In this document: positions 3,406 through 63,980 of the stretch, in pieces
Position numbering within the stretch: position 1 is the first letter of the stretch
Layout of the letters: each line of letters begins with the position of its first letter
Assembly (NCBI GenBank): GCA_030220185.1
Contig: JASPKZ010004953.1
Span: 966,501 to 1,030,500 of the forward strand
DNA: 64,000 nucleotides
Reading direction: 5' to 3'
From: Diploptera punctata
Taxonomy: Eukaryota > Arthropoda > Insecta > Blattodea > Blaberidae
The notes under the pieces: generated by a model
The model's database searches: none
Seen by the model: the letters and a program-made list of their open reading frames with translations, nothing else
What the model was told of the DNA's origin: nothing
Made by a program: the position numbers and the translations under genes

Positions 3406-4455
3406 TTATTCTTTCTTCACTCACCTCATACTTCTTAACTCCCACACATACTCGAGTTTTGTCACTTCATTTGTGACATTCTCAATGCTGTATTACGTTC
3501 ACAACTGATGTCCAACGGCCTTCTATCCTGCAGACTGACCTCCGCGCCGTCTGATGGCTGACCGACGAACTTCCAAATCAACCCCTTCTCCTTATAATCG
3601 GGTATTTCAAAATTCATAGTTGTGTTTTTATTCTTGCATATGTAAATTTTTTCCCAAATTGTGAGTTCCTTCGGTTTTTCCAATTGTTTAAGTAATTTTG
3701 TTTTGGTTTCTATTCTATGTTTTTCTGACCAGGCATGTGCAGCTATTGCAGATTTTTCTGTTTCTCCATTTTTAACATTTCTGAGGTGTTCCTTTAATCT
3801 TGTATTTAGATTCCTTTTTGTTTTTCATATGTATATCTTTTCACAATCTTTACAATTAATTTGATAAATTCCCGATCTTTTGCAGTCTTCAATCTTTTCA
3901 TTTTTGTTGGTGTTTATTAAATTACCTAATCTGTAATCTTTTTCAGTGCTAATTTAATGTTGAATTTGTTGGAAGATTTTTTTGAAACTTGTCAAATACT
4001 AAAGGATGGTATGTGAACTTCTTGAATTTTTTACCAATATCTTTACCTGTCAGAAGAGTACTTCCATTAATCATTTTTTTGTTCCTTAAATTTATTTATT
4101 TTCTTGTGTATCATCATTTCTTGAAATCCATTATCCTTTGCAATTTTTATGATGTGTTTTTTCTCTTTATTGTAATTTTCTTTGCTCATGGGAACGTTCA
4201 CAAGTCTGTGTGTTAGACTATTAAATACTGCCTGTTTGTGTGAAAAATGGTTAAATCCTGTAGCTTTTATATAATTGTTAATGTGAGTTTCTTTTCTGTA
4301 GATTCCAAATTCTATTTTCTTTTTTTCTTCATTCCTGATCAATTTAAGGTCTAAAAATGGTATTTCATGATTATTTTCTACTTCCATTGTAAATTTGATT
4401 GTTTTATTTTGAATATTTAACAGTTTAATGGCATCTTCTAAATTGTTTCTGTTTT
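3406..4455 (-). pseudogene. 5'-truncated PLE: RT C-terminal region and GIY-YIG, frameshifted
   Basis: From right to left on minus: NNHEIPFLDLKLIRNEEKKK, YNKEKKHIIKIAKDNGF, KSAIAAHAW-like endonuclease, and KPKELTIWEKIYICKNKN ending MNFEIP. It belongs to the same family as the ORF at 11325-13661 but is broken by indels. The 3' tail (CACCTCATACTTC) is at 3420. Confidence 0.85.
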
Positions 4456-4958: not shown

Positions 4959-5450
4959 GTTATGTAGATAGGAAATAACACTATGAGGTTTTTTTAATAT
5001 TTATTAGTATAAAGTAGTGTTAAATTCCCAATTAATGTCTTCTTAACTAAGAAGCCACCATTTGCAAAGATAGAAGCTACGGTTTTAAGGCATTTGGCGC
5101 GAGGGAATTACAATGTATATAAGATAAAAATTTGCATCTAGATCGCAACTCGCCTCGATAGCTCAGTTGGTAGAGCACTTGGCCCGGAAAGCCATGGGTC
5201 CCGGGTTCGAGTCTCGGTCTAGGCGAAAATTTTTCTCTTCAAATATTTTTTAATATTGTTTATTTGTTTCTTCACTCACCTCATACTTCATAACTCCCAC
5301 GCAAACTTGAGTTTTGTCACTTCATTTGTGACATTCTCAATGCTGTATTACGTTCACAACTGAGCATTGAGAATGTCACAAATGAAGTGACGAAACTCGA
5401 GTTTGTGTGGGAGTTATGAAGTATGAGGTGAGTGAAGAAACAAATAAACA
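4959..5450. mobile_element. PLE fold-back with nested tRNA unit; 12-bp target duplication
   Basis: The duplication ACACTTTAATAA is at 4947-4958 and 5451-5462. The left end is the long reversed tail (AGTTATGTAGATAGG, ACACTATGAGGT) and the right arm ends short (GAAGAAACAAATAAACA). The inverted arms meet near 5365. A tRNA-like unit (about 5010-5255) is inserted in the left tail. Confidence 0.88.
5010..5255 (+). repeat. tRNA-like unit of the GCCTCGG family, nested in a PLE tail
   Basis: The tRNA-like core is 5152-5224: A box TAGCTCAGTTGG, B box GGTTCGAGTCT, anticodon-arm stem CTTGGCC. Body upstream holds AAGAAGCCACCATTTGCAAA, shared with all members. It starts within the body, so it is truncated. 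Confidence 0.85.
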
Positions 5451-5544
5451 ACACTTTAATAAATTAATGTTTATATATTTTGTTTCTTATAACTAAATAA
5501 ACATGACTAAATACTAAATAAATATTGTACATATTATTAATATT

Positions 5545-5720
5545 GAGTGGAGAACATATTTTTAATAACTCACTTCATAATTCAAATTTATTTGAAACCA
5601 ATGGTCTTAAATAAATTTGAAATTGTATGAGGTGAGTTATTAAAAGTATGTTCTCCACTCAATATTAATGATATAACCTCATAATGTTTACTTCCCATCA
5701 TTAATTTTAATATATTGTAT
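5545..5720. mobile_element. PLE fold-back, GGAGAACATATTTT family
   Basis: Inverted arms around about 5605 (GTGGAGAACATATTTTTAAT and its reverse complement). The right long tail reads ATAACCTCATAATGTTTACT. Relatives are at 28050-28210 and 39693-39845. Confidence 0.8.
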
Positions 5721-5975
5721 ATATTAATTGAATATTCAGAAAGTAACATAATAATTAACCAAGCTGCTGAACAAGGGACAGTCTACTGAGAGAAAGACAC
5801 ATGTTTTCTTCACTGTCAATACTAAACAGATGATTTATCACCGCCCTTCCACCTGCATATTGTAGCTATAGCCTACTTACGGAAGGTAGAGAGGGAAAGA
5901 AAACCCTTTGACCTCTATCAACTCATTTGGAATATGGTTTAGCACAGTGGTCTCTAAAAATATTGTTAATATTAA

Positions 5976-9372: not shown

Positions 9373-10206
9373 TATTTGAAGAGAAAAATTTTCGCGTAGA
9401 CCGAGACTCGAACCTGGGACCTTTGGCTTGCCGGGCCAAATGCTCTACCAACTGAGCTACCGAGGCAAGTTACGATATAGACGCAAATTTTTCTCTTATA
9501 TACGTTGTAATTTCCTATCGCCAAATGCTTAGCTTATTTTTCTCTTCAAATATAATTTATCTTTCAGTGAGAAATGTTAAATCAATAATAAAAACATCAT
9601 TAGAAGGCTTACTAGCTTTATAAAGTAATGTTAAATTCCCAATAAATGTCTTCTTAACTAAAAAGCCGCCATTTGCAAAGATAGAAACAATGGTTTCAAA
9701 AGCATTTGGCGATAGGGAATTACAACGTATATAAGAGAAAAATTTGCGTCTATATCGTAACTTGCCTCGGTAGCTCAGTTGGTAGAGCATTTGGTCCGGC
9801 AAGCCAAAGGTCCCAGGTTCGAGTCTCGGTCTAGGCAAAAAATTTTCTCTTCAAATATAATTTATCTTTCAGTGAGAAATGTTAAATCAATAATAAAAAC
9901 ATCATTAGAAGCCTTACTAGTTTTATAAAGTAATGTTAAATTCCCAATAAATGTCTTCTTAACTAAGAAGCCGCCATTTGCAAAGATAAAAGCAATGGTT
10001 TCAAAAGCAATTGATGATAGGGAATTACAACGTATATAAGAGAAAAATTTGCATCTATATCGTAACTCGCCTCGGTAGCTCAGTTGGTAGAGCATTTGGC
10101 CCGGCAAGCCAAAGGTCCCAGGTTCGAGTCTCGGTCTAGGCGAAAATGTTTCTCTTCAAATATAATTTATCTTTCAGTGAGAAATGTTAAATCAATAATA
10201 AAAACA
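9373..10206. mobile_element. Concatemeric tRNA-unit array (one inverted, two direct units) with a single target duplication
   Basis: TAAACTAGCTTG at 9361-9372 and 10207-10218 flanks the whole block. tRNA-like cores: 9394-9466 (minus), 9764-9836 and 10069-10141 (plus); the direct units repeat every 305 bp. Each unit has the tRNA core, the flank TTTTTCTCTTCAAATAT, and a body with GCCGCCATTTGCAAAGATA. Ends in AATAATAAAAACA. Confidence 0.9.
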
Positions 10207-22626: not shown

Positions 22627-23032
22627 AATATTGTTTATTTTTTATTATTTCACTCACCTCATACTTCATAACTCCTCGCAAACCCAAGGTTTCGTCACAT
22701 CATTTGTGACATTCTCAATGCTGTGTCACATTCACAACTGACATCCAACGGCCTTCTATCCTCCAGACTGACCTCCGCGCCATCTGTTGGCTGCAGGATA
22801 GAAGGCCGTTGGACGTCAGTTGTGAATGTGACACAGCATTGAGAATGTCACAAATGATATGACGAAACCTTGGGTTTTGCGAGGAGTTATGAAGTATGAG
22901 GTGAGTGAAATAATAAAAAAATAAACAATATTAAAAAATAAATTTATCTTTCATTGAGAAATGTTAAATGAATAATAAAAAACATCAATATTAAAAAACC
23001 TCATAGTGTTATTTCCTATCTACATAACTTAA
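22627..23032. mobile_element. PLE fold-back containing a solo tRNA-unit tail
   Basis: Inverted arms meet near 22790; the long tail is on the right (AACCTCATAGTGTTATTTCC, CTACATAACTTAA). A 48-bp insertion at 22938-22985 splits the right tail. Confidence 0.85.
22938..22985 (+). mobile_element. Solo 48-bp tRNA-unit 3' tail with 12-bp target duplication
   Basis: The sequence is the family tail only (TTATCTTTCATTGAGAAATG, AATAATAAAAAACAT). CAATATTAAAAA occurs at 22926-22937 and 22986-22997. This shows extreme 5' truncation, as expected of priming from the 3' end. Confidence 0.85.
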
Positions 23033-34744: not shown

Positions 34745-35253
34745 TGAAGAGAAAAATTTTCGCCTAGACCGAGACTCGAACCCAGGACCTTTGGCTTGCC
34801 AGGCCAAATGCTCTACCAACTGAGCTACCGAGGCGAGTTGCGATCTAGACGCAAGCCAAAGGTCCCGGGTTCGAGTCTCGGTCTAGGTGAAAATTTTTCT
34901 CTTCAAATATAATTTTTCTTTCAGTGAGAAATGTTAAATTAATAATAAAAACATCATTAGAAGCCTTACTGGCTTTATAAAGTAATGTTAAATTCCCAAT
35001 AAATGTCTTCTTAACTAAGAAGCTGCCATTTGCAAAGATAGAAGCAATGGTTTCAAAAGCATTTGGCGAGAGGGAATTACAACATATATAAGAGAAAAAT
35101 TTGCATCTAGATCGCAATTCGCCTTGGTAGCTCAGTTGGTAGAGCATTTGGCCCAGCAAGCCAAAGGTCCCGGGTTCGAGTCTCGGCTAGGCGAAAATTT
35201 TTCTCTTCAAATATAATTTATCTTTCAGTGAGAAATGTTAAATCAATAATAAA
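34745..35253. mobile_element. tRNA-unit array with a single 15-bp target duplication
   Basis: AGCTTTTATTGTATT at 34730-34744 and 35254-35268. tRNA-like cores: 34762-34834 (minus, complete), about 34853-34890 (plus, 3' half), 35121-35192 (plus). The first two form a tRNA hairpin at the left end. Confidence 0.92.
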
Positions 35254-35984: not shown

Positions 35985-36168
35985 ACCTTTACTAGAAACT
36001 CATCATAAATTGTCTCTAGCAATTTTGTGGATGATTACTGGACATAGTTGCCTGAAATAAGTACTGTCTTAATTTAATTTATTATTAAGTGAAAAAGCTT
36101 CAATAATTTTATTGTATAAGAATACCTTATAGATTTTAACAATTTAAATAAATTATATTTAATGTGTT

Positions 36169-36481
36169 TAACTTTCACAGGGAAAGAACACTATGAGGTT
36201 TAATTTAAGAATTAAATTAATGATTTTATTACCTTACCTCATATATATTTTTTCTTCTATACTGCAGTTTCGGAGCTTATCTCCATCTTCAGTAGCCTCT
36301 GGTCGACTGGTGTTATGTCGTTTCTTGGCAGTTTTCTTCCAATATAGAAGTAAGAAGAAAACCGCCAAGAAACGACAACACCAGTCGATCAGAGGCTACT
36401 GAAGATGGAAATAAGCTCCGAAACTGCAGTATAGAAGAAAAAGGATATGAGGTGAGGTAATAAAAACATTAATTTAATTCT
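36169..36481. mobile_element. PLE fold-back with 15-bp target duplication
   Basis: TATATTTAATGTGTT at 36154-36168 and 36482-36496. Left long tail AGAACACTATGAGGTTTAAT; arms carry CTGAAGATGGA(G/A)ATAAGCTCCGAAAC cores on both strands. Confidence 0.92.
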
Positions 36482-36496
36482 TATATTTAATGTGTT

Positions 36497-38002: not shown

Positions 38003-38494
38003 TAAATTTGAAGAGAAAAATTTTCGCCTAGACCGGGACTCGAACCCGGGACCCTTGGCTTTCCGGGCCAAGTGCTCTACCAACTGAGCTACCGAGGCGA
38101 GTTACGATCTAGACGCAAATTTTTCTCTTATATATGTTGTAATTCCCTATCGCCAAATGCTTTTGAAACCATTGTTTCTATCTTTGCAAATGGCGGCTTC
38201 TTAGTTAAGAAGACATTTATTGGAAATTTAACATTACTTTAAAAGCCAGTAAGGCCTCTAATGATGTTTTTATTATTAATTTAACATTTCTCAATGAAAG
38301 ATAAATTAAATTTGAAGAGAAAAATTTTCGCCTAGACCGGGACTCGAACCCGGTAGCTCAGTTGGTAGAGCACTTGGCCCGGAAAGCCAAGGGTCCCGGG
38401 TTCGAGTCCCGGTCTAGGCGAAAAAAAAAAAAATTTTCTCTTCAAATTTAATTTATCTTTCATTGAGAAATGTTAAATTAATAATAAAAACATC
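38003..38494. mobile_element. tRNA-unit array with 12-bp target duplication
   Basis: AATGAAGTATGT at 37991-38002 and 38495-38506. A full minus unit (tRNA core 38026-38098), then a fold-back turning point inside the T arm at about 38345 and a plus core to 38419, followed by an A run and the family tail AATAATAAAAACATC. Confidence 0.93.
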
Positions 38495-38529: not shown

Positions 38530-38880
38530 TGCTGTGGCGTAGTCGGTAGAGTCCCTACCTTCCACTCCAGCAACCCAGGTTCCATTCCCGGCGGGGTAAT
38601 GAATTTTAATATCTCAATCTTGGGACTGGGCGTGTCTTAGTTGTACCCATTGGGTTTTATTCCCCTACCTTCCACTCCGGTGACCCATGTTCCATTCCCA
38701 GCTGGGTAATGGATTTTAATATCTCAATCTTGGGACTAGGCTTGTCTTAGTTGCACCCATTGGGTTTTATACCTTCCACTCCCATGACCCGGGTTCCATT
38801 CCCGGCGGGGTAATGGATTTTAATATCTCAACCTTGAGACTAGGTGTGTGTCGTGTCCTAGTTGTACCCATTGAGTTAAT
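38530..38880 (+). repeat. tRNA-headed SINE with internal tandem triplication
   Basis: Head GCTGTGGCGTAGTCGGTAGA; the segment from TACCTTCCACTC through GGGTAATG and ATCTCAATCTTGGGACT to CCCATTGGGTTTTA is repeated three times with a period near 107 bp (about 38556, 38664, 38770). Confidence 0.8.
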
Positions 38881-45388: not shown

Positions 45389-45608
45389 TTTTAATGTTAA
45401 TATTATTAGTTTTTAAACATCTTAATGATGGACAAATTATATTTGAAAAGAAAAATATACGCCTAGACTGGGGTTTGAACCCAGGACCTTTGACTATCTA
45501 TGTCAATGCTCTTCCATCTAAGCTACCTAGGGCTCCAATCTAAATGCGTATTTTTCTCTTATACATAGTCAAACCGCAGTCTAGGCGTATATTTTTCTTT
45601 TCAATTAT
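45389..45608 (-). mobile_element. tRNA unit with fold-back end; 13-bp target duplication
   Basis: ATATCTTGTTAGT at 45376-45388 and 45609-45621. Minus tRNA core about 45460-45535; the right end turns back within the T arm (CAAACCGCAGTCTAGGCGTA) and ends TTTTTCTTTTCAAT. Confidence 0.9.
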
Positions 45609-46415: not shown

Positions 46416-46432
46416 AAGATATATTGGATTTA

Positions 46433-46936
46433 ATAATTAAATTAATGTTTTTATTACCTCACCTCATATCCTTTTTCTTCTATACTGCAGTTTCGGAGCT
46501 TATCTCCATCGTCAGTAGCCTCTGGTCGACCGGTGTTATGTCGTTTCTTGGCGGTTTCCTTCTTACTTCTATCGGTGGACCGATGAACCTCTGGATCAGG
46601 TCAAAATTTGCGGGAGTTTCAAAATTCATGAGTTTGTCTTTTTTTGTGTTCTTTTTTTTGGAAAAATCCATATCCAAAAAAAAACAAAAAAGACAAACTC
46701 ATGAATTTTGAAACTCCCGCAAATTTTGACCTGATCCAGAGGTTCATTGGTCCACCGATAGAAGTAAGAAGGAACCGCCAAGAAACGACATAACACCGGT
46801 CGACCAGAGGCTACTGACGATGGAGATAAGCTCCGAAACTGCAGTATAGAAGAAAAAGGATATGAGGTGAGGTAATAAAAACATTAATTTAATTATTAAA
46901 TTAAACCTCATAGTGTTCTTTCCCTGTGAAAGTTAA
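46433..46936. mobile_element. PLE fold-back with 14-bp target duplication and canonical hammerhead cores
   Basis: ATATATTGGATTTA at 46419-46432 and 46937-46950. Arms of about 240 bp encode MNFETPANFDLIQRFIGPPI on minus and its inverse. Cores CTGACGA, GGAG/CTCC, GAAA, CTGCAG lie at 46484-46515 (minus) and 46814-46844 (plus). Right end long tail ACCTCATAGTGTTCTTTCCC. Confidence 0.93.
46814..46844 (+). ncRNA. Hammerhead-ribozyme-like core
   Basis: CTGACGA, U, stem II GGAG/CTCC with loop ATAAG, GAAA, CTGCAG; its mirror is at 46484-46515 on the minus strand. Confidence 0.65.
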
Positions 46937-47119
46937 ATATATTGGATTTACTCACATTTCAATGTATTCATTTAAATGATATTCATTTAAATCCACAAAA
47001 ACATTCTTCACATTCTGCAAGTGTCTATGGAATCGTGTACCACATCCATACCAGAGAAAAATTTACTAATATAATTTGGTACACAAAGTGTTCGTAAACT
47101 ACATGAAAGTAGGAAACCA

Positions 47120-51290: not shown

Positions 51291-51318
51291 CCTAAAATTA
51301 AATATTATATATATACAC

Positions 51319-52953
51319 AGTGAGATCAGTTTAGTAGTGGGAGGCAGATGCAGGGTTTGTGCTGTGCAATAACGAAGGCTTACGCGTGCAGGCACGGGAC
51401 CTGAAATGTACGCAGCAGTTTACGAGTTCACGGCCACAGTCAGATAGTGTACCTCGAGTAGATAAGGTGCTTGATCACTTTTCCTTGTGAACTGAATGGC
51501 GTGTGTATAATGTAAACTGAATGACATGTGTATAAGTTATTTCAATTTTAAAATTTGTGTCTTATAAAACATAAGTGTAAAGTGAATCACGTGTGTATGA
51601 GTGTAAACTGTATAATGGTTAATAACTTTTTCTACTGAACAACGTGTATTTATTTATGAACAATATTTATTAACTCAGTCTGCCAGCCAAGTAAGAAGAT
51701 GTTTTGAAACAATTCCCGTGTGTAAAAATTCCATCATTTTCAACAGTCCATAATATTGTTTTTATTATTGATTTAACATTACTCAATGAAAGATAAATTA
51801 AATTTGAAGAGAAAAATTTTCGCCCAGACCGGGACTCGAACCCGGGACCCTTGGCTTTCCGGGCCAAGTGCTCTACCAACTGAGCTACCGAGGCGAGTTA
51901 CGATCTAGATGCAAATTTTTCTCTTATATACGTTGGTTTCAAAAGCATTTGGCGATAGGGAATTACAACGTATATAAGAGAAAAATTTGCGTCTAGATCG
52001 TAACTCGCCTCGGTAGCTCAGTTGGTAGAGCACTTGGCCCGGAAAGCCAAGGGTCCCAGGTTCAAGTCCCGGTCTGGGCGAAAATTTTTCTCTTCAAATT
52101 TAATTTATCTTTCATTGAGAAATGTTAAATCAATAATAAAAACATCATTAGAAGCCTTACTAGCTTTATAAAGTAATGTTAAATTCCCAATAAATGTCTT
52201 CTTAACTAAGAAGCCGCCATTTGCAAAGATAGAAGCAATGGTTTCAAAAGCATTTGGCGATAGGGAATTACAGCGTATATAAGAGAAAAATTTGCGTCTA
52301 GATCGTAACTCGCCTCGGTAGCTCAGTTGGTAGAGCACTTGGCCCGGAAAGCCAAGGGTCCCGGGTTCGAGTCCCGGTCTGAGCGAAAATTTTTCTCTTC
52401 AAATTTAATTTATCTTTCATTGAGAAATGTTAAATGAATAATAAAAAAACATCATTAGAAGCCTTACTAGCTTTATAAAGTAATGTTAAATTCCCAATAA
52501 ATGTCTTCTTAACTAAGAAGCCGCCATTTGCAAAGATAGAAGCAATGGTTTCAAAAGCATTTGGCGATAGGGAATTACAACGTATATAAGAGAAAAATTT
52601 GCATCTAGATCGTAACTCGCCTCAGTAGCTCAGTTGGTAGAGCACTTGGCCCGGAAAGCCAAGGGTCCCGGGTTCGAGTCCCGGTCTGGGCAAAAATTTT
52701 TCTCTTCAAATTTAGTCCATAATATGTTCAACAAATTTTATACAGAGGTGTCAAAAATGTATGGACAACGAAGGTGAAAAGTTCCAGCACCTGCTTCAAT
52801 AAAGTTGATAAGTACGACAATTTGTAAAATACTTACGAAAATGTGTGTGGTTGTGTCACCGGGATCCTAGCTGTCCATTCCTCGCCGCGAGTGCGTCAGC
52901 AGTGTATAGTGAAATCCCCGCATCTGCCTTCGACTACTAAACTGATCTCACTG
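51319..52953. mobile_element. TIR element (CAGTGAGATCAGTTTAGTAG) carrying a tRNA-unit array
   Basis: Ends CAGTGAGATCAGTTTAGTAG...GGCAGATGC and the inverse GCATCTGCC...CTACTAAACTGATCTCACTG; TA at 52954. Without the array (51757-52713) it is about 0.67 kb with no coding sequence, so a non-autonomous DNA element. Confidence 0.82.
51757..52713. mobile_element. 957-bp tRNA-unit concatemer (one inverted, three direct) with a single 12-bp target duplication
   Basis: AGTCCATAATAT at 51745-51756 and 52714-52725. tRNA cores: 51822-51894 (minus); 52007-52079, 52312-52384, 52619-52691 (plus), at steps of 305 and 307 bp. All keep A box TAGCTCAGTTGG and most B box GGTTCGAGTCC. The inverted unit begins with the reversed tail. 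Confidence 0.95.
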
Positions 52954-53017
52954 TATATATACACATACACATATATTGAATAGACTAGATTGAAAAAATT
53001 ATGTTCTAAAGTATCAT

Positions 53018-53245: not shown

Positions 53246-53260
53246 TGCTTTTTTTTTTAG

Positions 53261-53591
53261 GCCTGATCTTTATCGAGCATCAGGGAAATTTGAGTTGTTG
53301 GATCGCATTTTACCAAAACTAAAAGCTACAAATCACAGAGTACTGTTGTTCTGCCAGATGACACAGTTAATGACTATTATGGAGGATTATCTGAGCTGGC
53401 GTGGATTTTCTTACTTAAGATTAGATGGTACAACAAAAGCAGAGGATCGTGGTGATCTTCTTCGCAAGTTTAATAGTCCTGATTCTGAGTACTTCCTGTT
53501 TCTTCTGAGCACCAGGGCTGGTGGACTTGGCTTGAACTTACAAGCAGCTGATACTGTTATTATATTCGACTCTGATTGGAATCCGCATCAG
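53261..53591 (+). CDS. brm: brahma exon L: helicase C lobe, motifs IV-V
   Basis: Acceptor TTTTAG after a T run; donor GTATAT. It encodes [40 protein letters not shown] (motif IV), [13 protein letters not shown] and [20 protein letters not shown] (motif V), ending SDWNPHQ. At 331 nt it is the longest exon in the window. It is preceded by a 10-kb intron, the largest here. Confidence 0.98.
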
Positions 53592-53694: not shown

Positions 53695-55460
53695 AGCTAA
53701 TACCCGGTGTGCGCCGTTACGCCCAAATAAATGAAAATTAATGTGCTTTTATGTTTAGTTGAATAAGTAAAAGGAAAAATAATTATAAATTTACTTTTTA
53801 GATAGCCCATGCTGATTACCCAGCATTGCCCGGGAATCTACTTATCCCAATATTCTTGACATAAATGAGCTAAAATACGAAAATTAATGTGTTTTATGTT
53901 TAGTTAAATAAGTAAAAGGAAACATTAATAAATTAATGAGTCATTTTAACATCTTACCTCATAAATTAAATTTGAAGAGAAAAATTTTCGCCTAGACCGG
54001 GACTCGAACCCGGGACCCTTGGCTTTCCGGGCCAAGTGCTCTACCAACTGAGCTACCGAGGCGAGTTACGATCTAGACGAAAATTTTTCTCTTCAAATTT
54101 AATTTATCTTTCATTGAGAAATGTTAAATTAATAATAAAAACATCATTAGAGGCCTTACTGGCTTTTAAAGTAATGTTAAATTTCCAATAAATGTCTTCT
54201 TAACTAAGAAGCCGCCATTTGCAAAGATAGAAACAATGGTTTCAAAAGCATTTGGCGATAGGGAATTACAACGTATATAAGAGAAAAATTTGCGTCTAGA
54301 TCGTAACTCGCCTCGGTAGCTCAGTTGGTAGAGCACTTGGCCCGGAAAGCCAAGGGTCCCGGGTTCGAGTCCCGGTCTAGGCGAAAATTTTTCTCTTCAA
54401 ATTTAATTTATCTTTCATTGAGAAATGTTAAATTAATAATAAAAACATCTTACCTCATATTTAACTTTGAAAAGGAAACATATCGTAATTATTTTTAGAT
54501 ACTCCATGCTCTTTACCTGGCATTGTCCAGGAATCTACTCATCCCGATCTTCTTGGCATAAGTGAGCTGAAAGACGAAAATTAATGTACTTCTTATGATT
54601 AATTGAATAAGTAAAATGAAAAATAATTATAAATGTATGTCATAATTATTTTAAGATTCCCCGTGCTGATTATCCAGCGTTGCCCGGGAATCTACATATC
54701 CCAATCTTCTTGACATAAATGAGCTAAAATATGAAAATTAATGTGTTTTGTGTTTAGTTAAGTAGAAGGAAACATATCATAATTATTCTTAGATACTCCA
54801 TGCTCTTTACCTGGTATTGTCTGGGAATCTACTCATCCCGATCTTCTTGGCATAAATGAGCTGAAAGACAAAAATTAATGTACTTCTTATGATTAATTGA
54901 ATAATTAAAATGAAAAATAATTATAAATGTATATCGTAATTATTTTAAGATTCCCCGTGCTGATTACCTGGTGTTGCCTGGGAATCTACTTATCTCGATC
55001 TTCTTGGTATAAATGAGCTAAAAGATAAAATTCGTTATTGTGAGTTATCCGTAAAAGAATACCCGCCATGTGCTACTATGCTTGCACAGGAATCTATGTA
55101 CTTGCCTTGATCTTCTTGGCATCAATGAAAGACAAAAATGGTTTGTGTGAGTTATCCATAAGATATGCTGTCGTGGACTTTTTTGTAGAGCTTTTTGAGA
55201 TATTCCATTATGTGTACATTAATTTTGTGTATTTGTTATGGTTTAGGCAGTGTAAGCCATTTAAGCGTCCAAAGAGCTATTTTTTTCACATTTTTTCACT
55301 ACAAAGGGCGATTTTTATGGGTGTAGGAGTTGAGTATCACAACTCTCTTATAGCCTATGTTCATCCCGGGAATCTCCTGAACATTTTGCAAAAAGCCCCA
55401 TCACAGTCGGATCAACGGTATGGCCATGCATAAAGTACAAACAAACAATCATTCATTTTT
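53695..55460 (+). repeat. Degenerate tandem repeat, 137-160 bp period
   Basis: Units begin AGAT(A/T)CCC(A/G)TGCTGATTA-like at about 53801, 54497, 54654, 54790 and 54946, each with GCATTGCCCGGGAATCTAC and TGACATAAATGAGCTAAAA. Open frames within are repeat translation. Split by the array at 53963-54443. Confidence 0.75.
53963..54443. mobile_element. tRNA-unit array with 15-bp target duplication inside a PLE-like site
   Basis: AACATCTTACCTCAT at 53948-53962 and 54444-54458. The left inverted tRNA core is 53990-54062 and the plus core 54310-54382. The target itself is a PLE tail sequence. Confidence 0.94.
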
Positions 55461-56279: not shown

Positions 56280-56410
56280 GTATTATTTTGAAAAGTAGAA
56301 TTAATACCTGAATTGAGATTTGAACCCAAAACCTCTAGCTCTGTACACTAGTGTGCTGACCATTACACTATTTCAGGCTCCCGATACAAATGTTAATTCT
56401 TCTTCCTCAT
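56280..56410 (-). repeat. tRNA-like unit, GTAATGGTCAGC-type
   Basis: Reverse strand: AGTGTAATGGTCAGCACACT and GGTTTTGGGTTCAAATCTCA; flanks TTTTGAAAAGTAGAATTAAT. Confidence 0.7.
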
Positions 56411-59189: not shown

Positions 59190-59700
59190 ATATATTTGAA
59201 AAGAAAAATATACTTATTCAAAGTTAAAATTGGGAAACACATTATGAGGTTCTTAATTAATAAATTAATGAGTCATTTTAACATCTTACCTCATACAATG
59301 GCGGTTGAAAATGAATGACAAGATCATTTGAAAACTATAGTTACCGTGTTTGAAAAACATGAAATATGAGGTAAGATGTTAAAATGACTCATTAATTTAT
59401 TATTTAGAAAAATATACGCCTAGACTGGGGTTTGAACCCAGAACCTTTGACTTTCTATGTCAGTGCTCTTCCATCTGAGCTACCTAGGCCTCCAATCTAA
59501 ACGCGTATTTTTCTCTTACACATAGTTAATTCCCTAACCCCAAATGCTCCGAGCCGTTGCTACGATTTTTGCAAATGGCGGATTCTTTATTAAGAAGACT
59601 TTTTATTGGGAATTTAAACATTACTTATAAAGCCAGTAGTGCTTCTTTCAATGTTAATATTATTTGTTTTTAAACATCTTAATGATGGACAAATTATATT
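59190..59700 (-). mobile_element. tRNA unit (TCTAGGC family) split by a PLE fold-back
   Basis: Minus core about 59418-59492, body with TTGCAAATGGCGGATTCTTT, reversed end TTAAACATCTTAATGATGGA. A 192-bp PLE hairpin interrupts its flank. Confidence 0.85.
59214..59405. mobile_element. PLE fold-back nested in a tRNA unit; 12-bp target duplication
   Basis: AGAAAAATATAC at 59202-59213 and 59406-59417. Long tail left (AATTGGGAAACACATTATGA), arms with AATGAGTCATTTTAACATCT, short tail right. Confidence 0.93.
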
Positions 59701-61374: not shown

Positions 61375-61475
61375 TTGGTACAAGATGGGACGAACATGCC
61401 TTGAACCACCTTTGTCTAATAAACACACCTACTATTGATTGGAAGAATATAAATTAAAACAAACCAAACTCTGAA

Positions 61476-62048
61476 TGTTTTTATTATTAATTTAATACTT
61501 CTCACTGAAGGACAAATTATATTTGAAGAGAAAAATTATATGCTCAGACCAGGGTTTGAACCCAGGACCTTTGGCTTTCTAGGCCAATGCTCCACTCCTG
61601 AGCTTTCTGAGCACTCCAATCTAAATGCAAATTTTTCTCTTATACATTGTTAATTCCCGAGCGCTGAATGCTACGAGCCTTTACTCGATTATGTAATTGG
61701 TGGCTTCTTATTTAAGAAGACATTTATTGGGGATTAAAACGCTACTTTATAACGCGAGTAGGGCTTCTTTTGATGTTTTTTTTGTTAATTTAGTACTTCT
61801 CACTGAAGGACAAATTATATTAGAAAAGAAAAATTATATGCTCAGACAGGGATTTGAACCTAGGACCTTTGGCTTTCTAGGCCAATGCTCTACTGGCGCT
61901 GAGCTATCTGAACACTCCAATCTAAATGCAAATTTTTCTCTTATACATTGTTAATTCCCGAGCGCCGAATGCTACAAGCCTTTGCCTGATTATGCAAATG
62001 GCAGCTTCTTTTTTAAGAAGACATTTATTGGGAATTTAAACATTACTT
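61476..62048 (-). mobile_element. Two tandem tRNA units (TCTGAGC family)
   Basis: Reversed tail TGTTTTTATTATTAATTTAA, tRNA cores at about 61542-61612 and 61848-61918 (step about 306 bp), bodies with AAGAAGACATTTATTGGG. Both cores have lost some cloverleaf pairing. Confidence 0.85.
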
Positions 62049-62758
62049 AAACAGTGAACTACAAGCTCTTTATAAGAAACCAAATATAATAAAACAAAAT
62101 TAATCTTAAAGTTCATAAAATTGGCATCAGATGACCATTCGGAGGTTGATGGTAATGGCAGAATTTCAACCATCAGAGTTTTGGCTGAGGATAGGGGCGA
62201 TGGCCCTTGAAACCAGTCCTGTGAAAATCATTTATAAGGTGGAATGTAAAAGATTTCTCAGACTCAATTTATAAATTTAAAAAGAAAAGAACAATTAATG
62301 TTAATATTCGTTTTTAAACATCTTAATGATGGACAAATTATATTTGAAAAGAAAAATATACGCCTAGACTGGGGTTTGAACCCAGGACCTTTGACATCAG
62401 ATGGAAGAGCATTGACATAGAAAGTCAAAGGTCCTGGGTTCAAACCCCAGTCTAGGCGTATATTTTTCTTTTCAAATATAAAGAACAGTTAAGTCTCATA
62501 GACTGCAATGGGCATGATATGTGGCACAAATGGGAAATGAAAGAGGGGCTTGGAAACTCCTGTAGGAAAGCCAGAGGGAAAGCGTCCAGTAGGTAGCCAA
62601 GAATGAGGTGAGAGAATAATATTAACCGTGACTTGAGGAAAGTTGATTATACTGGGGATGACTGGAAAATTTTAGCTCAGGATATGAATGTATGGAGAGC
62701 TTATGTCTGTGTGGCCATAAACCTACAGGTTCGATAATGCCAGTGAGTTAGTTAGTTA
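62049..62758 (+). mobile_element. LINE 3' end interrupted by a PLE end and a tRNA hairpin
   Basis: ACAGTGAACTACAAGCTCTT and AAGAACAGTTAAGTCTCATA through GTTCGATAATGCCAGTGAGT follow the order of 29230-29545. Insertions: PLE terminus about 62095-62280 and hairpin 62290-62478. Confidence 0.8.
62290..62478. mobile_element. tRNA T-arm hairpin with 55-bp perfect arms
   Basis: Arms 62341-62395 and 62424-62478 are exact reverse complements around a 28-nt loop. Each arm holds the flank (TTTGAAAAGAAAAATATACG) and the tRNA T arm (GGGGTTTGAACCCAGGACC). AAGAACA(A/G)TTA near 62285 and 62480 is the target duplication. Confidence 0.9.
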
Positions 62759-62962: not shown

Positions 62963-63362
62963 GTCACCTCATATTGTTCTTCTTATTTGATTATAAACTA
63001 GTTTCGGAACATAATTTCTGTTCCATTACTGAGGATGGAACAGAAATTATGTTCCGAAACTAGTTTATAATCAAATATTGTTCTTCTTATTTGATTATAA
63101 ACTAGTTTCGGAACATAATTTCTGTTCCATTACTGAGGATGGAACAGAAATTATGTTCCGAAACTAGTTTATAATCAAATATTGTTCTTCTTATTTGATT
63201 ATAAACTAGTTTCGGAACATAATTTCTGTTCCATTACTGAGGATGGAACAGAAATTATGTTCCGAAACTAGTTTATAATCAAATAAGAAGAACAATATGA
63301 GGTGAGTGATAAAAAATATTCTACCTTAATGAATATACCTCATAGTGAGAATTCCTAAAATA
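62963..63362. mobile_element. Trimer of a 104-bp hammerhead palindrome, single 12-bp target duplication
   Basis: AGTAATGTAACT at 62951-62962 and 63363-63374. Units start at 62973, 63077 and 63181 and are identical by eye. Each is an inverted repeat of about 48 bp carrying CTGAGGA, GGAACA/TGTTCC, GAAA, CTAGTTTATAATC. The right end adds the normal tail (ATATGAGGTGAGTG...ACCTCATAGTGAGAATTCC). Confidence 0.93.
63029..63073 (+). ncRNA. Hammerhead-ribozyme-like core (repeated at 63133 and 63237)
   Basis: CTGAGGA, U, 6-bp stem II GGAACA/TGTTCC, GAAA and a stem-III segment ending ATC. Three tandem copies in the same orientation could form the dimeric hammerheads proposed for PLEs. Confidence 0.68.
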
Positions 63363-63784: not shown

Positions 63785-63980
63785 CAGAAAATTACAATGT
63801 ATATAGAGAAAGATTTGCGTTTAGATCGGCACTTGCTCAGGTAGCTCAGTTGGTAGAGCACTTGGTCTAGAGAACCAAGGGTCCCGGGTTCAAATCCCGG
63901 TCTGAGCGTATAATTTTTCTCTTCAAATATGATTTATCCATCATTGAGATGTACGAAACCAATAATAGAAATTAAGTCTT
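63785..63980 (+). repeat. Best-preserved tRNA-like unit in the window
   Basis: Core about 63834-63907 folds as a full cloverleaf: acceptor GCTCAGG/TCTGAGC (7 pairs, one G-T), D stem GCTC/GAGC, anticodon stem CTTGGT/ACCAAG around CTAGAGA, T arm CCGGG/CCCGG with TTCAAAT. A box TAGCTCAGTTGG and B box GGTTCAAATCC are perfect. The AGATTTGCG/CGTATAATTTTTCT flanks show it is a unit of the repeat, not a lone tRNA gene. Confidence 0.8.

What the first reader, a model, noticed from the sequence alone, without database searches (positions are those of the whole stretch)
51757..52713. tRNA-bearing units insert as multi-unit concatemers in single events
Four tRNA-like units (one inverted, three in tandem at about 306-bp steps) share one 12-bp target duplication, AGTCCATAATAT, and sit inside a TIR element. 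Arrays at 9373-10206, 34745-35253, 38003-38494 and 53963-54443 behave likewise, each with its own 12-15 bp duplication. The unit is circularly permuted: body, tRNA, then tail AATAATAAAAACATC. The junction from tail to next body is seamless, as expected if a circular or tandem RNA was copied. Ordinary SINEs insert as monomers with the tRNA at the 5' end. This looks like a retrozyme-like element in which a tRNA-like sequence takes the place of a ribozyme.
Basis: partly seen in the sequence, partly recalled or inferred. Interest (0 to 1): 0.88.

Follow-up and report, generated by a model that had tools for sequence, protein, structure and literature searches.

The report
Tandem tRNA elements inserted Penelope-style
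In an unnamed 3.1-billion-base genome, a 304-base repeat carrying a tRNA-like fold has inserted as ready-made strings of copies, apparently by a Penelope-type retrotransposon machinery rolling around a single circular RNA, which resembles the known ribozyme-bearing 'retrozymes' but with a tRNA-like domain and no recognisable ribozyme.

Summary
The four-unit array at 51757-52713 has exact 12-bp duplications inside a TIR element; a second copy of that element (L020) carries the empty site, and the window carries the empty site of L020's own six-block array. All 24 two-armed arrays examined are head-to-head; in 20 of 24 one end is the unit tail and the opposite-strand arm stops 19-48 nt short (median 38). 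The genome's abundant GIY-YIG Penelope-like elements (PLEs) insert alike: 11 of 12 sampled 3' ends have an inverted arm; over 14 copies it stops 14-43 nt short (median 37.5). Units within an array mostly share private variants, also across arms, and differ by singletons (108 of 120), so most arrays were copied from one monomer, best explained by a circular RNA; four arrays are mixed. No known ribozyme was found. The tRNA-like fold and a competing leader hairpin both have partial covariation support. Verdict: a PLE-mobilised, retrozyme-like tandem element with a tRNA-like domain. Single-event insertion is shown; PLE partnership and circular template are strongly supported; how the circle forms, and the tRNA's part in it, is untested.

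The parts
51745..51756 (.). left target-site duplication AGTCCATAATAT
   Evidence: single copy at the empty site L020:4310-4321
52714..52725 (.). right target-site duplication AGTCCATAATAT
51757..51935 (-). arm 1 of the array: ends outward at the unit tail (unit position 302), runs inward to position 124
51934..52713 (+). arm 2 of the array: about 2.6 units in tandem, starts at unit position 92 and ends outward at about 260, about 42 nt short of the tail
51821..51894 (-). tRNA-like domain in arm 1
   Evidence: 52.2 bits, RF00005
52007..52080 (+). tRNA-like domain, unit 1 of arm 2
52312..52385 (+). tRNA-like domain, unit 2 of arm 2
52619..52692 (+). tRNA-like domain, unit 3 of arm 2
51310..51358 (+). 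left terminal inverted repeat of the TIR element that received the array
   Evidence: second copy of this element in L020
52913..52961 (-). right terminal inverted repeat of the same element
9373..10206 (.). two-armed array, 12-bp TSD TAAACTAGCTTG
34745..35252 (.). two-armed array, 16-bp TSD
38003..38494 (.). two-armed array, 12-bp TSD AATGAAGTATGT
53964..54443 (.). two-armed array, 16-bp flanking repeat; its plus arm holds one full unit, 54146-54449
5002..5245 (+). single-arm insertion ending at unit position 265 (not the tail), 12-bp TSD, beside PLE-like terminal sequence
22935..22986 (+). tail-only insertion (unit 254-304), flanking repeat CAATATTAAAAAA, beside PLE-like terminal sequence
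36167..36490 (.). PLE 3' end inserted two-armed: arms end at -2 and -34, 16-bp TSD
46428..46937 (.). PLE 3' end inserted two-armed: arms end at -38 and -2, 14-bp TSD

Best explanation
A non-autonomous retroelement with a 304-bp, 37.5% GC unit, mobilised by the genome's GIY-YIG Penelope-like elements. Read-through transcription of old arrays yields RNA from which single units are made circular (inferred). The PLE enzyme cuts the target with an 11-16 bp stagger (stagger shown by the TSDs, enzyme inferred). The two target 3' ends each prime reverse transcription on the same sense RNA (inferred from the arms), one at the tail (about 303) and one about 38 nt upstream, in the AT-rich stretch 3' of the tRNA-like domain. 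Each cDNA runs round the circle a variable number of times, and the two inward-growing cDNAs join at arbitrary positions, usually with short overlap. This gives a head-to-head array of near-identical units within one TSD. The tRNA-like domain is probably kept by selection on its fold and serves RNA processing or recognition; its exact role is open.
For: Single event: reciprocal empty sites of the window and L020 arrays; 15 of the 22 two-armed arrays, plus L040, have exact flanking repeats of 12-16 bp at the array ends. Architecture: 24 of 24 two-armed arrays head-to-head, 17 of 24 with one end at 299-304 and the other at 256-269, two more at 274 and 276. Same architecture in PLEs: 11 of 12 sampled 3' ends have an inverted arm, with the direct arm at -1 and the inverted arm at -35 to -44 in 9 of the 11; exact TSDs of 11-14 bp in 7. 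Median offset 37.5 nt (14 PLE copies) against 38 nt (20 arrays). A PLE frame with RVT_1 and GIY-YIG; 45,022 first-look GIY-YIG candidates, all 150 scored over cut-off. A tail on one end only, with the inverted repeat 37 bp shorter, is in print for a bdelloid Penelope (PMC3846280, passages). Single-unit template: within-array distance 0.0136 against 0.0330 permuted, 0 of 5000 as low; 108 of 120 within-array minor alleles are singletons; L010, L011, L012, L019 and L026 have 3, 20, 10, 7 and 6 array-fixed minority columns, shared by both arms. Seam: 2 of 40 indel events fall in the 20-nt bin over the tail/body seam.
Against: No RNA data, so the circle is inferred. L013, L014, L023 and L027 mix unit types, so not every array came from one monomer; of the two-armed arrays with four or more full units, L014 and L025 have no array-fixed minority column and L022 only 1. 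L013 (304/304), L021 (304/285) and L028 (264/35) break the end rule, and L014 and L025 are cut by the fetched stretch. Single-strand arrays exist (for example L015/L016, L017, L020, L024, L027). By nearest neighbour only 79.2 of 117 units have it in their own array, and 40 of 76 have an other-arm unit nearer than any outside unit (L015/L016 both included). Among PLEs L051 has no inverted arm, L052's ends at -15 and L049's is in several pieces. The shared 3' motif with the PLE is only suggestive (136 of 5000 shuffles as good; for the AGA subfamily the best match is another stretch, 724 of 5000). The one PLE/unit abutment looked at closely (L042) has no TSD.
Confidence: 0.72

Rival explanations
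1. Linear multimer: a long read-through transcript of a tandem source array is reverse-transcribed once by twin priming, without any circle.
For: Explains tandem units, TSDs and the inverted arm; the mixed arrays L013, L014, L023 and L027 fit a heterogeneous template.
Against: Parallel inheritance would make units within an array as divergent as units of different arrays; observed 0.0136 against 0.0330 permuted, with up to 20 columns fixed across both arms of an array (L011). Within-array mutations are mostly singletons (108 of 120), also in diverged arrays such as L019 and L026, so homogenisation after insertion is not evident.
Confidence: 0.15
2. DNA-level origin: a monomer or small insertion grew by unequal exchange, or rolling replication of extrachromosomal DNA fed the insertion.
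For: SINE-derived tandem repeats are described for reptiles (PMC10702118, title and start of abstract seen only); L014 and other mixed arrays may have recombined.
Against: Empty sites show whole arrays plus one TSD absent from a sister element; both opposite-strand arms share private variants; outer ends are fixed while the inner flip varies; units seldom share derived variants with only some of their array (12 of 120 minor alleles).
Confidence: 0.05
3. LINE-mobilised tRNA SINE: ordinary SINE with L1-like twin priming and template jumping.
For: tRNA-like domain with A- and B-box strings, A-rich tail, TSDs of 11-16 bp.
Against: None of 21 longer copies in 114 kb of window and random stretches starts exactly at the tRNA 5' end (unit 165), though the old copy L039:5523-5797 starts at 172 in that alignment (20 nt earlier with the AGA query). 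PLE arms re-copy the same 3' region from two sites and arrays use two sites the same distance apart, the pattern printed for a Penelope. No indel concentration at the seam. No LINE was searched for directly.
Confidence: 0.08

Closest known systems
Metazoan non-LTR retrozymes (Cervera and de la Pena 2020, PMC7229834; abstract, passages and discussion read; also passages of the review PMC7761336)
   Same: About 300-bp low-GC units, dimers to long multimers (62-mers), TSDs longer than 4 bp when present, no coding capacity; the authors propose a circRNA template giving tandem cDNA and PLEs as likely partner.
   Different: Retrozymes are defined by a type I hammerhead; here no hammerhead or other Rfam ribozyme is found and a tRNA-like domain is present. 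Two-armed head-to-head insertion with a half tail did not appear in the parts I read.
Endonuclease-bearing Penelope elements (PMC3846280; passages read)
   Same: Inverted repeat at the 5' end, an optional 31-bp tail at one of the inverted repeats with the 5' inverted one 37 bp shorter, TSDs (8-10 bp in the passages, absent in some copies), partial tandems.
   Different: The unit here is non-coding, 304 bp and multi-copy per insertion. The authors read the inverted structures as self-priming, perhaps on an antisense template; my reading is priming from both target ends on sense RNA.
Helenus, a TRIM with tRNA-like LTRs (Kojima 2024, PMC10886601; abstract and passages read)
   Same: tRNA-derived sequence repeated in a non-autonomous retroelement; tandem arrays noted for LTR-11_DR.
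   Different: 4-5 bp TSDs, PBS and PPT, LTR machinery; no inverted arm mentioned in the parts read.
tRNA-derived SINEs (general knowledge)
   Same: tRNA-like domain with internal Pol III boxes, non-coding, high copy number, TSDs.
   Different: Here the tRNA lies inside the unit, copies are multi-unit and two-armed, and a T5 run starts at unit 243, just after the domain (165-238).

Membership tests
non-LTR retrozyme | type I hammerhead ribozyme in the unit | tested here: not met
   No ribozyme at gathering score in the window or at E<=10 on the array 51750-52730; no exact CTGANGA core in the unit on either strand, two one-mismatch cores on the minus strand, none followed by GAAA as a core
non-LTR retrozyme | tandem units of about 150-450 bp, low GC, TSDs longer than 4 bp | tested here: met
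   304 bp, GC 0.375; TSDs 12-16 bp in 15 of 22 two-armed arrays
non-LTR retrozyme | expressed as monomeric circular RNA | not testable with these tools
   no RNA data; only indirect support from array-wide private variants
PLE-mobilised element | two-armed head-to-head insertion with the tail on one end only | tested here: met
   24 of 24 head-to-head; offset measured in 20 of 24, median 38, against 37.5 in 14 local PLE copies
PLE-mobilised element | 3' sequence shared with the autonomous partner | tested here: inconclusive
   TCTTTC..TG.GAAA(T)GTTAAA match, 136 of 5000 shuffles as good; AGA subfamily 724 of 5000
tRNA SINE | tRNA-derived domain with Pol III A and B boxes | tested here: met
   tRNA-like domain at unit 165-238, A-box string at 172, B-box string at 217 (box consensus recalled); 24 window matches to RF00005, most of them to this family
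tRNA SINE | copies start at the tRNA 5' end and end in a LINE-derived tail | tested here: not met
   none of 21 longer copies in 114 kb starts exactly at unit 165; one old copy at 172. LINE-derived tail not tested
Helenus / TRIMp3 | 4-5 bp TSD with PBS and PPT between LTRs | tested here: not met
   TSDs 12-16 bp and opposite-strand arms; PBS and PPT not searched

The most novel reading that the evidence does not exclude
A ribozyme-free retrozyme: the tRNA-like domain itself drives circle formation (one cut per unit by a tRNA-processing nuclease, then ligation), the complementary leader acts as a switch that hides the tRNA fold in the finished circle, and the PLE reverse transcriptase rolls round the circle from both sides of the target cut.
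Probability: 0.27. Interest if true: 0.93.

Novelty: new variant of a known kind. Interest (0 to 1): 0.8.

Why it matters
In the papers read, circular RNA as template and PLEs as partner of retrozyme-type repeats are proposals resting on shared features and co-occurrence (PMC7229834 discussion; PMC7761336 passages). Here sequence alone ties a tandem element to the insertion signature of PLEs in the same genome and indicates that most arrays were born homogeneous from one unit. The element does this without a recognisable ribozyme and with a tRNA-like fold, so a host tRNA-processing route to circular transposition intermediates becomes directly testable. It also warns annotators: ARAGORN tRNA genes in this window, many of them in these repeats.

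Tried and rejected
Hidden ribozyme: Rfam at gathering score and at E<=10 and a hammerhead core scan (which also scanned the loci held then for a minimal hammerhead pattern, 0 found) gave none; microRNA-precursor matches lie at the array's own inverted repeat and below their gathering scores. Hammerhead_1 in the whole genome: 0 matches, but only 73 of 296,903 candidates were scored and the control rang nowhere, so nothing follows.

Template jumping on linear monomers: no indel concentration at the seam. LTR/TRIM origin: rejected on TSD and arm structure. PLE/unit fusion as proof of shared machinery: 5 abutments listed; only L042 was read closely, without TSD, not used as proof. L036 has unit fragments about 1 kb from a two-armed PLE; taken as unrelated. 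PLE frame against solved structures: 0 matches.

Literature searches for a tRNA-bearing, ribozyme-free retrozyme or a PLE-mobilised tandem tRNA SINE (one search listed 20 of 2,546, 20 of 21) showed no paper that describes one, judged from titles and starts of abstracts except for four papers read in part. No bioRxiv or subscription papers are held.

Full report
SETTING. The window (34% GC) is C4809:966501-1030500 of an unnamed 3.12-Gb, 10,165-contig genome. The species was not identified; an exon near 53260-53590 reads to me as a SNF2-type helicase (not searched).

OBSERVATION. The array at 51757-52713 is bounded by AGTCCATAATAT on both sides and interrupts a TIR element with 49-nt inverted repeats at 51310-51358 and 52913-52961. 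Locus L020 holds another copy of this TIR element (87-90% identical in the flanks), interrupted elsewhere by its own six-block array with TSD TGTATAATGGTT. L020:4310-4321 carries AGTCCATAATAT once, so it is the empty site of the window array; the window at about 51608 carries TGTATAATGGTT once and is the empty site of L020's array. Each whole array, with one duplication, is therefore best read as one insertion.

ANATOMY. One search joined matches no more than 30 nt apart in the window, in 20 fetched array loci (L009-L028, taken from the top of a search and so biased to long arrays) and in the two of five random 10-kb stretches that held copies. It gave 24 arrays with units on both strands. All 24 run minus then plus, that is with tRNA 5' sides inward. 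In 17 of 24 one outer end is at unit 299-304 and the other at 256-269 (BLAST coordinates); L009 and L018 have 276 and 274; L021 has 285; L013 has the tail at both ends; L028 ends at 264 and 35; L014 and L025 are cut by the fetched stretch. The inner flip point varies, and in most arrays the arms overlap there by 1-11 nt. Of the 22 two-armed arrays, 15 have an exact flanking repeat of 12-16 bp at their ends; L040's array adds one of 12 bp, L039's has none. The longest seen is L025 with at least 20 blocks, partial ones counted. Arrays on one strand also occur (L015/L016, L017, L020, L024, L027), ending at either of the two positions; L015 and L016 mirror each other in structure and TSD and were treated as one insertion.

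UNBIASED VIEW. In the window plus the five random stretches (114 kb) one search lists 21 copies longer than 120 bp, 8 of them two-armed; the count depends on the 30-nt joining rule (L039:5364-5488 and 5523-5797 may be one). Three of the five random stretches have none. Linear extrapolation would give several hundred thousand copies, an order of magnitude only because copies cluster. None of the 21 starts exactly at the tRNA 5' end (unit 165); L039:5523-5797 starts at 172 in that alignment, and 20 nt earlier with the AGA query.

ONE MONOMER PER ARRAY. From 20 arrays with two or more full units (115 units; L016 dropped) the mean within-array distance is 0.0136 against 0.0330 under label permutation (0 of 5000 as low). 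In the 13 arrays with four or more units, 108 of 120 minor alleles in gap-free columns are singletons, against a fraction of 0.73 among 361 polymorphisms when labels are permuted. L010, L011, L012, L019 and L026 have 3, 20, 10, 7 and 6 columns (gaps counted) fixed for a state that is in the minority elsewhere, shared by both arms; L022 has 1, L014 and L025 none. Parallel descent of a linear multimer would not give within far below between. Against: L013, L014, L023 and L027 mix unit types, of which L013 and L027 lack a TSD, L023 has one of 12 bp, and L014 was not fetched whole; template switching or recombination may explain them. By strict nearest neighbour the signal is weaker (79.2 of 117; other-arm test 40 of 76). 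Cutting 105 units tRNA to tRNA in 17 loci gives nearly constant lengths in many (L010 10 of 303, L012 4 of 305, L019 4 of 305, L028 4 of 304) but a spread of 297-305 in L011 and one unit of 320 in L014; 2 of 40 indel events fall in the bin over the tail/body seam, so there is no end-to-end jump scar. A circular monomer is the simplest template; repeated copying of one linear monomer is not excluded.

PARTNER. GIY-YIG domains are very common here: 45,022 first-look candidates, 150 of 150 scored over the cut-off. L042 holds an open 537-codon frame with RVT_1 (1.4e-10) and GIY-YIG (2.3e-9). A 3'-end query listed 40 places; 12 of the first 14 rows were fetched (row 1 is L030 itself, one row was left out). 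Eleven of 12 have an inverted arm, L051 has none. The direct arm ends at -1, mostly followed by a short A run. The inverted arm ends at -35 to -44 in nine, at -15 in L052; in L049 it is in several pieces, the outermost ending at -30 by BLAST or about -42 once the TSD is taken off. Exact TSDs of 11-14 bp are seen in seven (L044, L045, L046, L047, L049, L053, L054); in the other inverted ones the longest shared word is 6-10 bp and not at the ends or too short to trust. Two window copies (36167-36490, 46428-46937) have TSDs of 16 and 14 bp, L030 12 and L036 14. Taking the direct arm as -1, the offset over 14 PLE copies is 14-43 nt, median 37.5 (37.5 to 38.5 by how L049 is entered); over 20 of 24 arrays it is 19-48, median 38 (L036, L051 and L013, L014, L025, L028 left out as not measurable or off the rule). 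Both PLE arms copy the same 3' region. Pairing arms of the same insertion gives 0.011 difference, reached by 14 of 5000 random pairings, but the PLEs are so alike that the plain means hardly differ (within 0.019, between 0.021). An optional 31-bp tail on one end, with the other inverted repeat 37 bp shorter, is printed for a bdelloid Penelope, whose authors favour self-priming (PMC3846280, passages). A 3' stretch ending in GTTAAA is shared by unit and PLE, but only at 136 of 5000 shuffles, and not as the best match for the AGA subfamily.

tRNA-LIKE DOMAIN. I picked 22 diverse copies out of 181 full-length matches. The cloverleaf pairs in 92.8% of cells, covariation score 0.247 against at most 0.110 for slid versions. 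The 5' leader is also nearly complementary to the tRNA 3' strand and trailer; this alternative hairpin pairs in 89.4% of cells, score 0.137 against at most 0.092, with three of its 24 pairs broken in half or more of the sequences. Columns 107, 112 and 113 change together with partners in both structures. Caution: the number of pairs with changes on both sides was reached by 68 and 82 of 500 shuffles, and further pair types by 500 and 362; the sequences fall in few subfamilies, and the structures were drawn on one of them. The unit folds at -99.6 kcal/mol, z -7.2. A T5 run starts at unit 243, just after the domain, and should stop Pol III (recalled rule), so unit-length RNA more likely comes from read-through. 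My reading, inferred: a switch between a processable tRNA fold and a closed rod, comparable to the blocked hammerheads of plant retrozymes and viroids described in PMC7229834.

RIBOZYME. None found; the whole-genome hammerhead search is uninformative.

VERDICT. Works like a retrozyme, inserts like a PLE, is not a retrozyme by the defining ribozyme. New variant of a known kind, with a possibly new route to circular RNA still to be tested.

Noticed in passing
window 5002-5245 and 22935-22986: Two unit fragments, one ending at unit 265 and one tail-only, lie beside the same PLE-like terminal sequence at what looks like the same site, possibly remnants of one ancestral insertion copied with its host element.
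   Followed up: partly
L013, L014, L023, L027: Arrays that mix unit types; candidates for template switching between circles or for later recombination.
   Followed up: partly
L042:2357-4155: A PLE copy abuts, without spacer, an inverted fragment of the AGA-type unit that ends near the usual second position; possible chimeric insertion, no TSD found.
   Followed up: partly
window 61475-62054, 59406-59646, 45394-45563, 63790-63971; L039: Older AGA-anticodon relatives of the unit, about 73-83% identical to the main consensus.
   Followed up: partly
L043:2062-2163 and 3693-3794: 102-bp direct repeats, 93% alike, on both sides of a PLE frame, like Penelope pseudo-LTRs.
   Followed up: no
window 62971-63285: Three perfect 104-bp tandem copies containing an internal inverted repeat (100% matches).
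   Followed up: no
window 38553-38849: 2.8 copies of a 110-bp tandem unit close to the array at 38003-38494.
   Followed up: no
window 56306-56377; L038:295-366: A different tRNA-like repeat (Cys-type anticodon aca), not matched by the unit.
   Followed up: no
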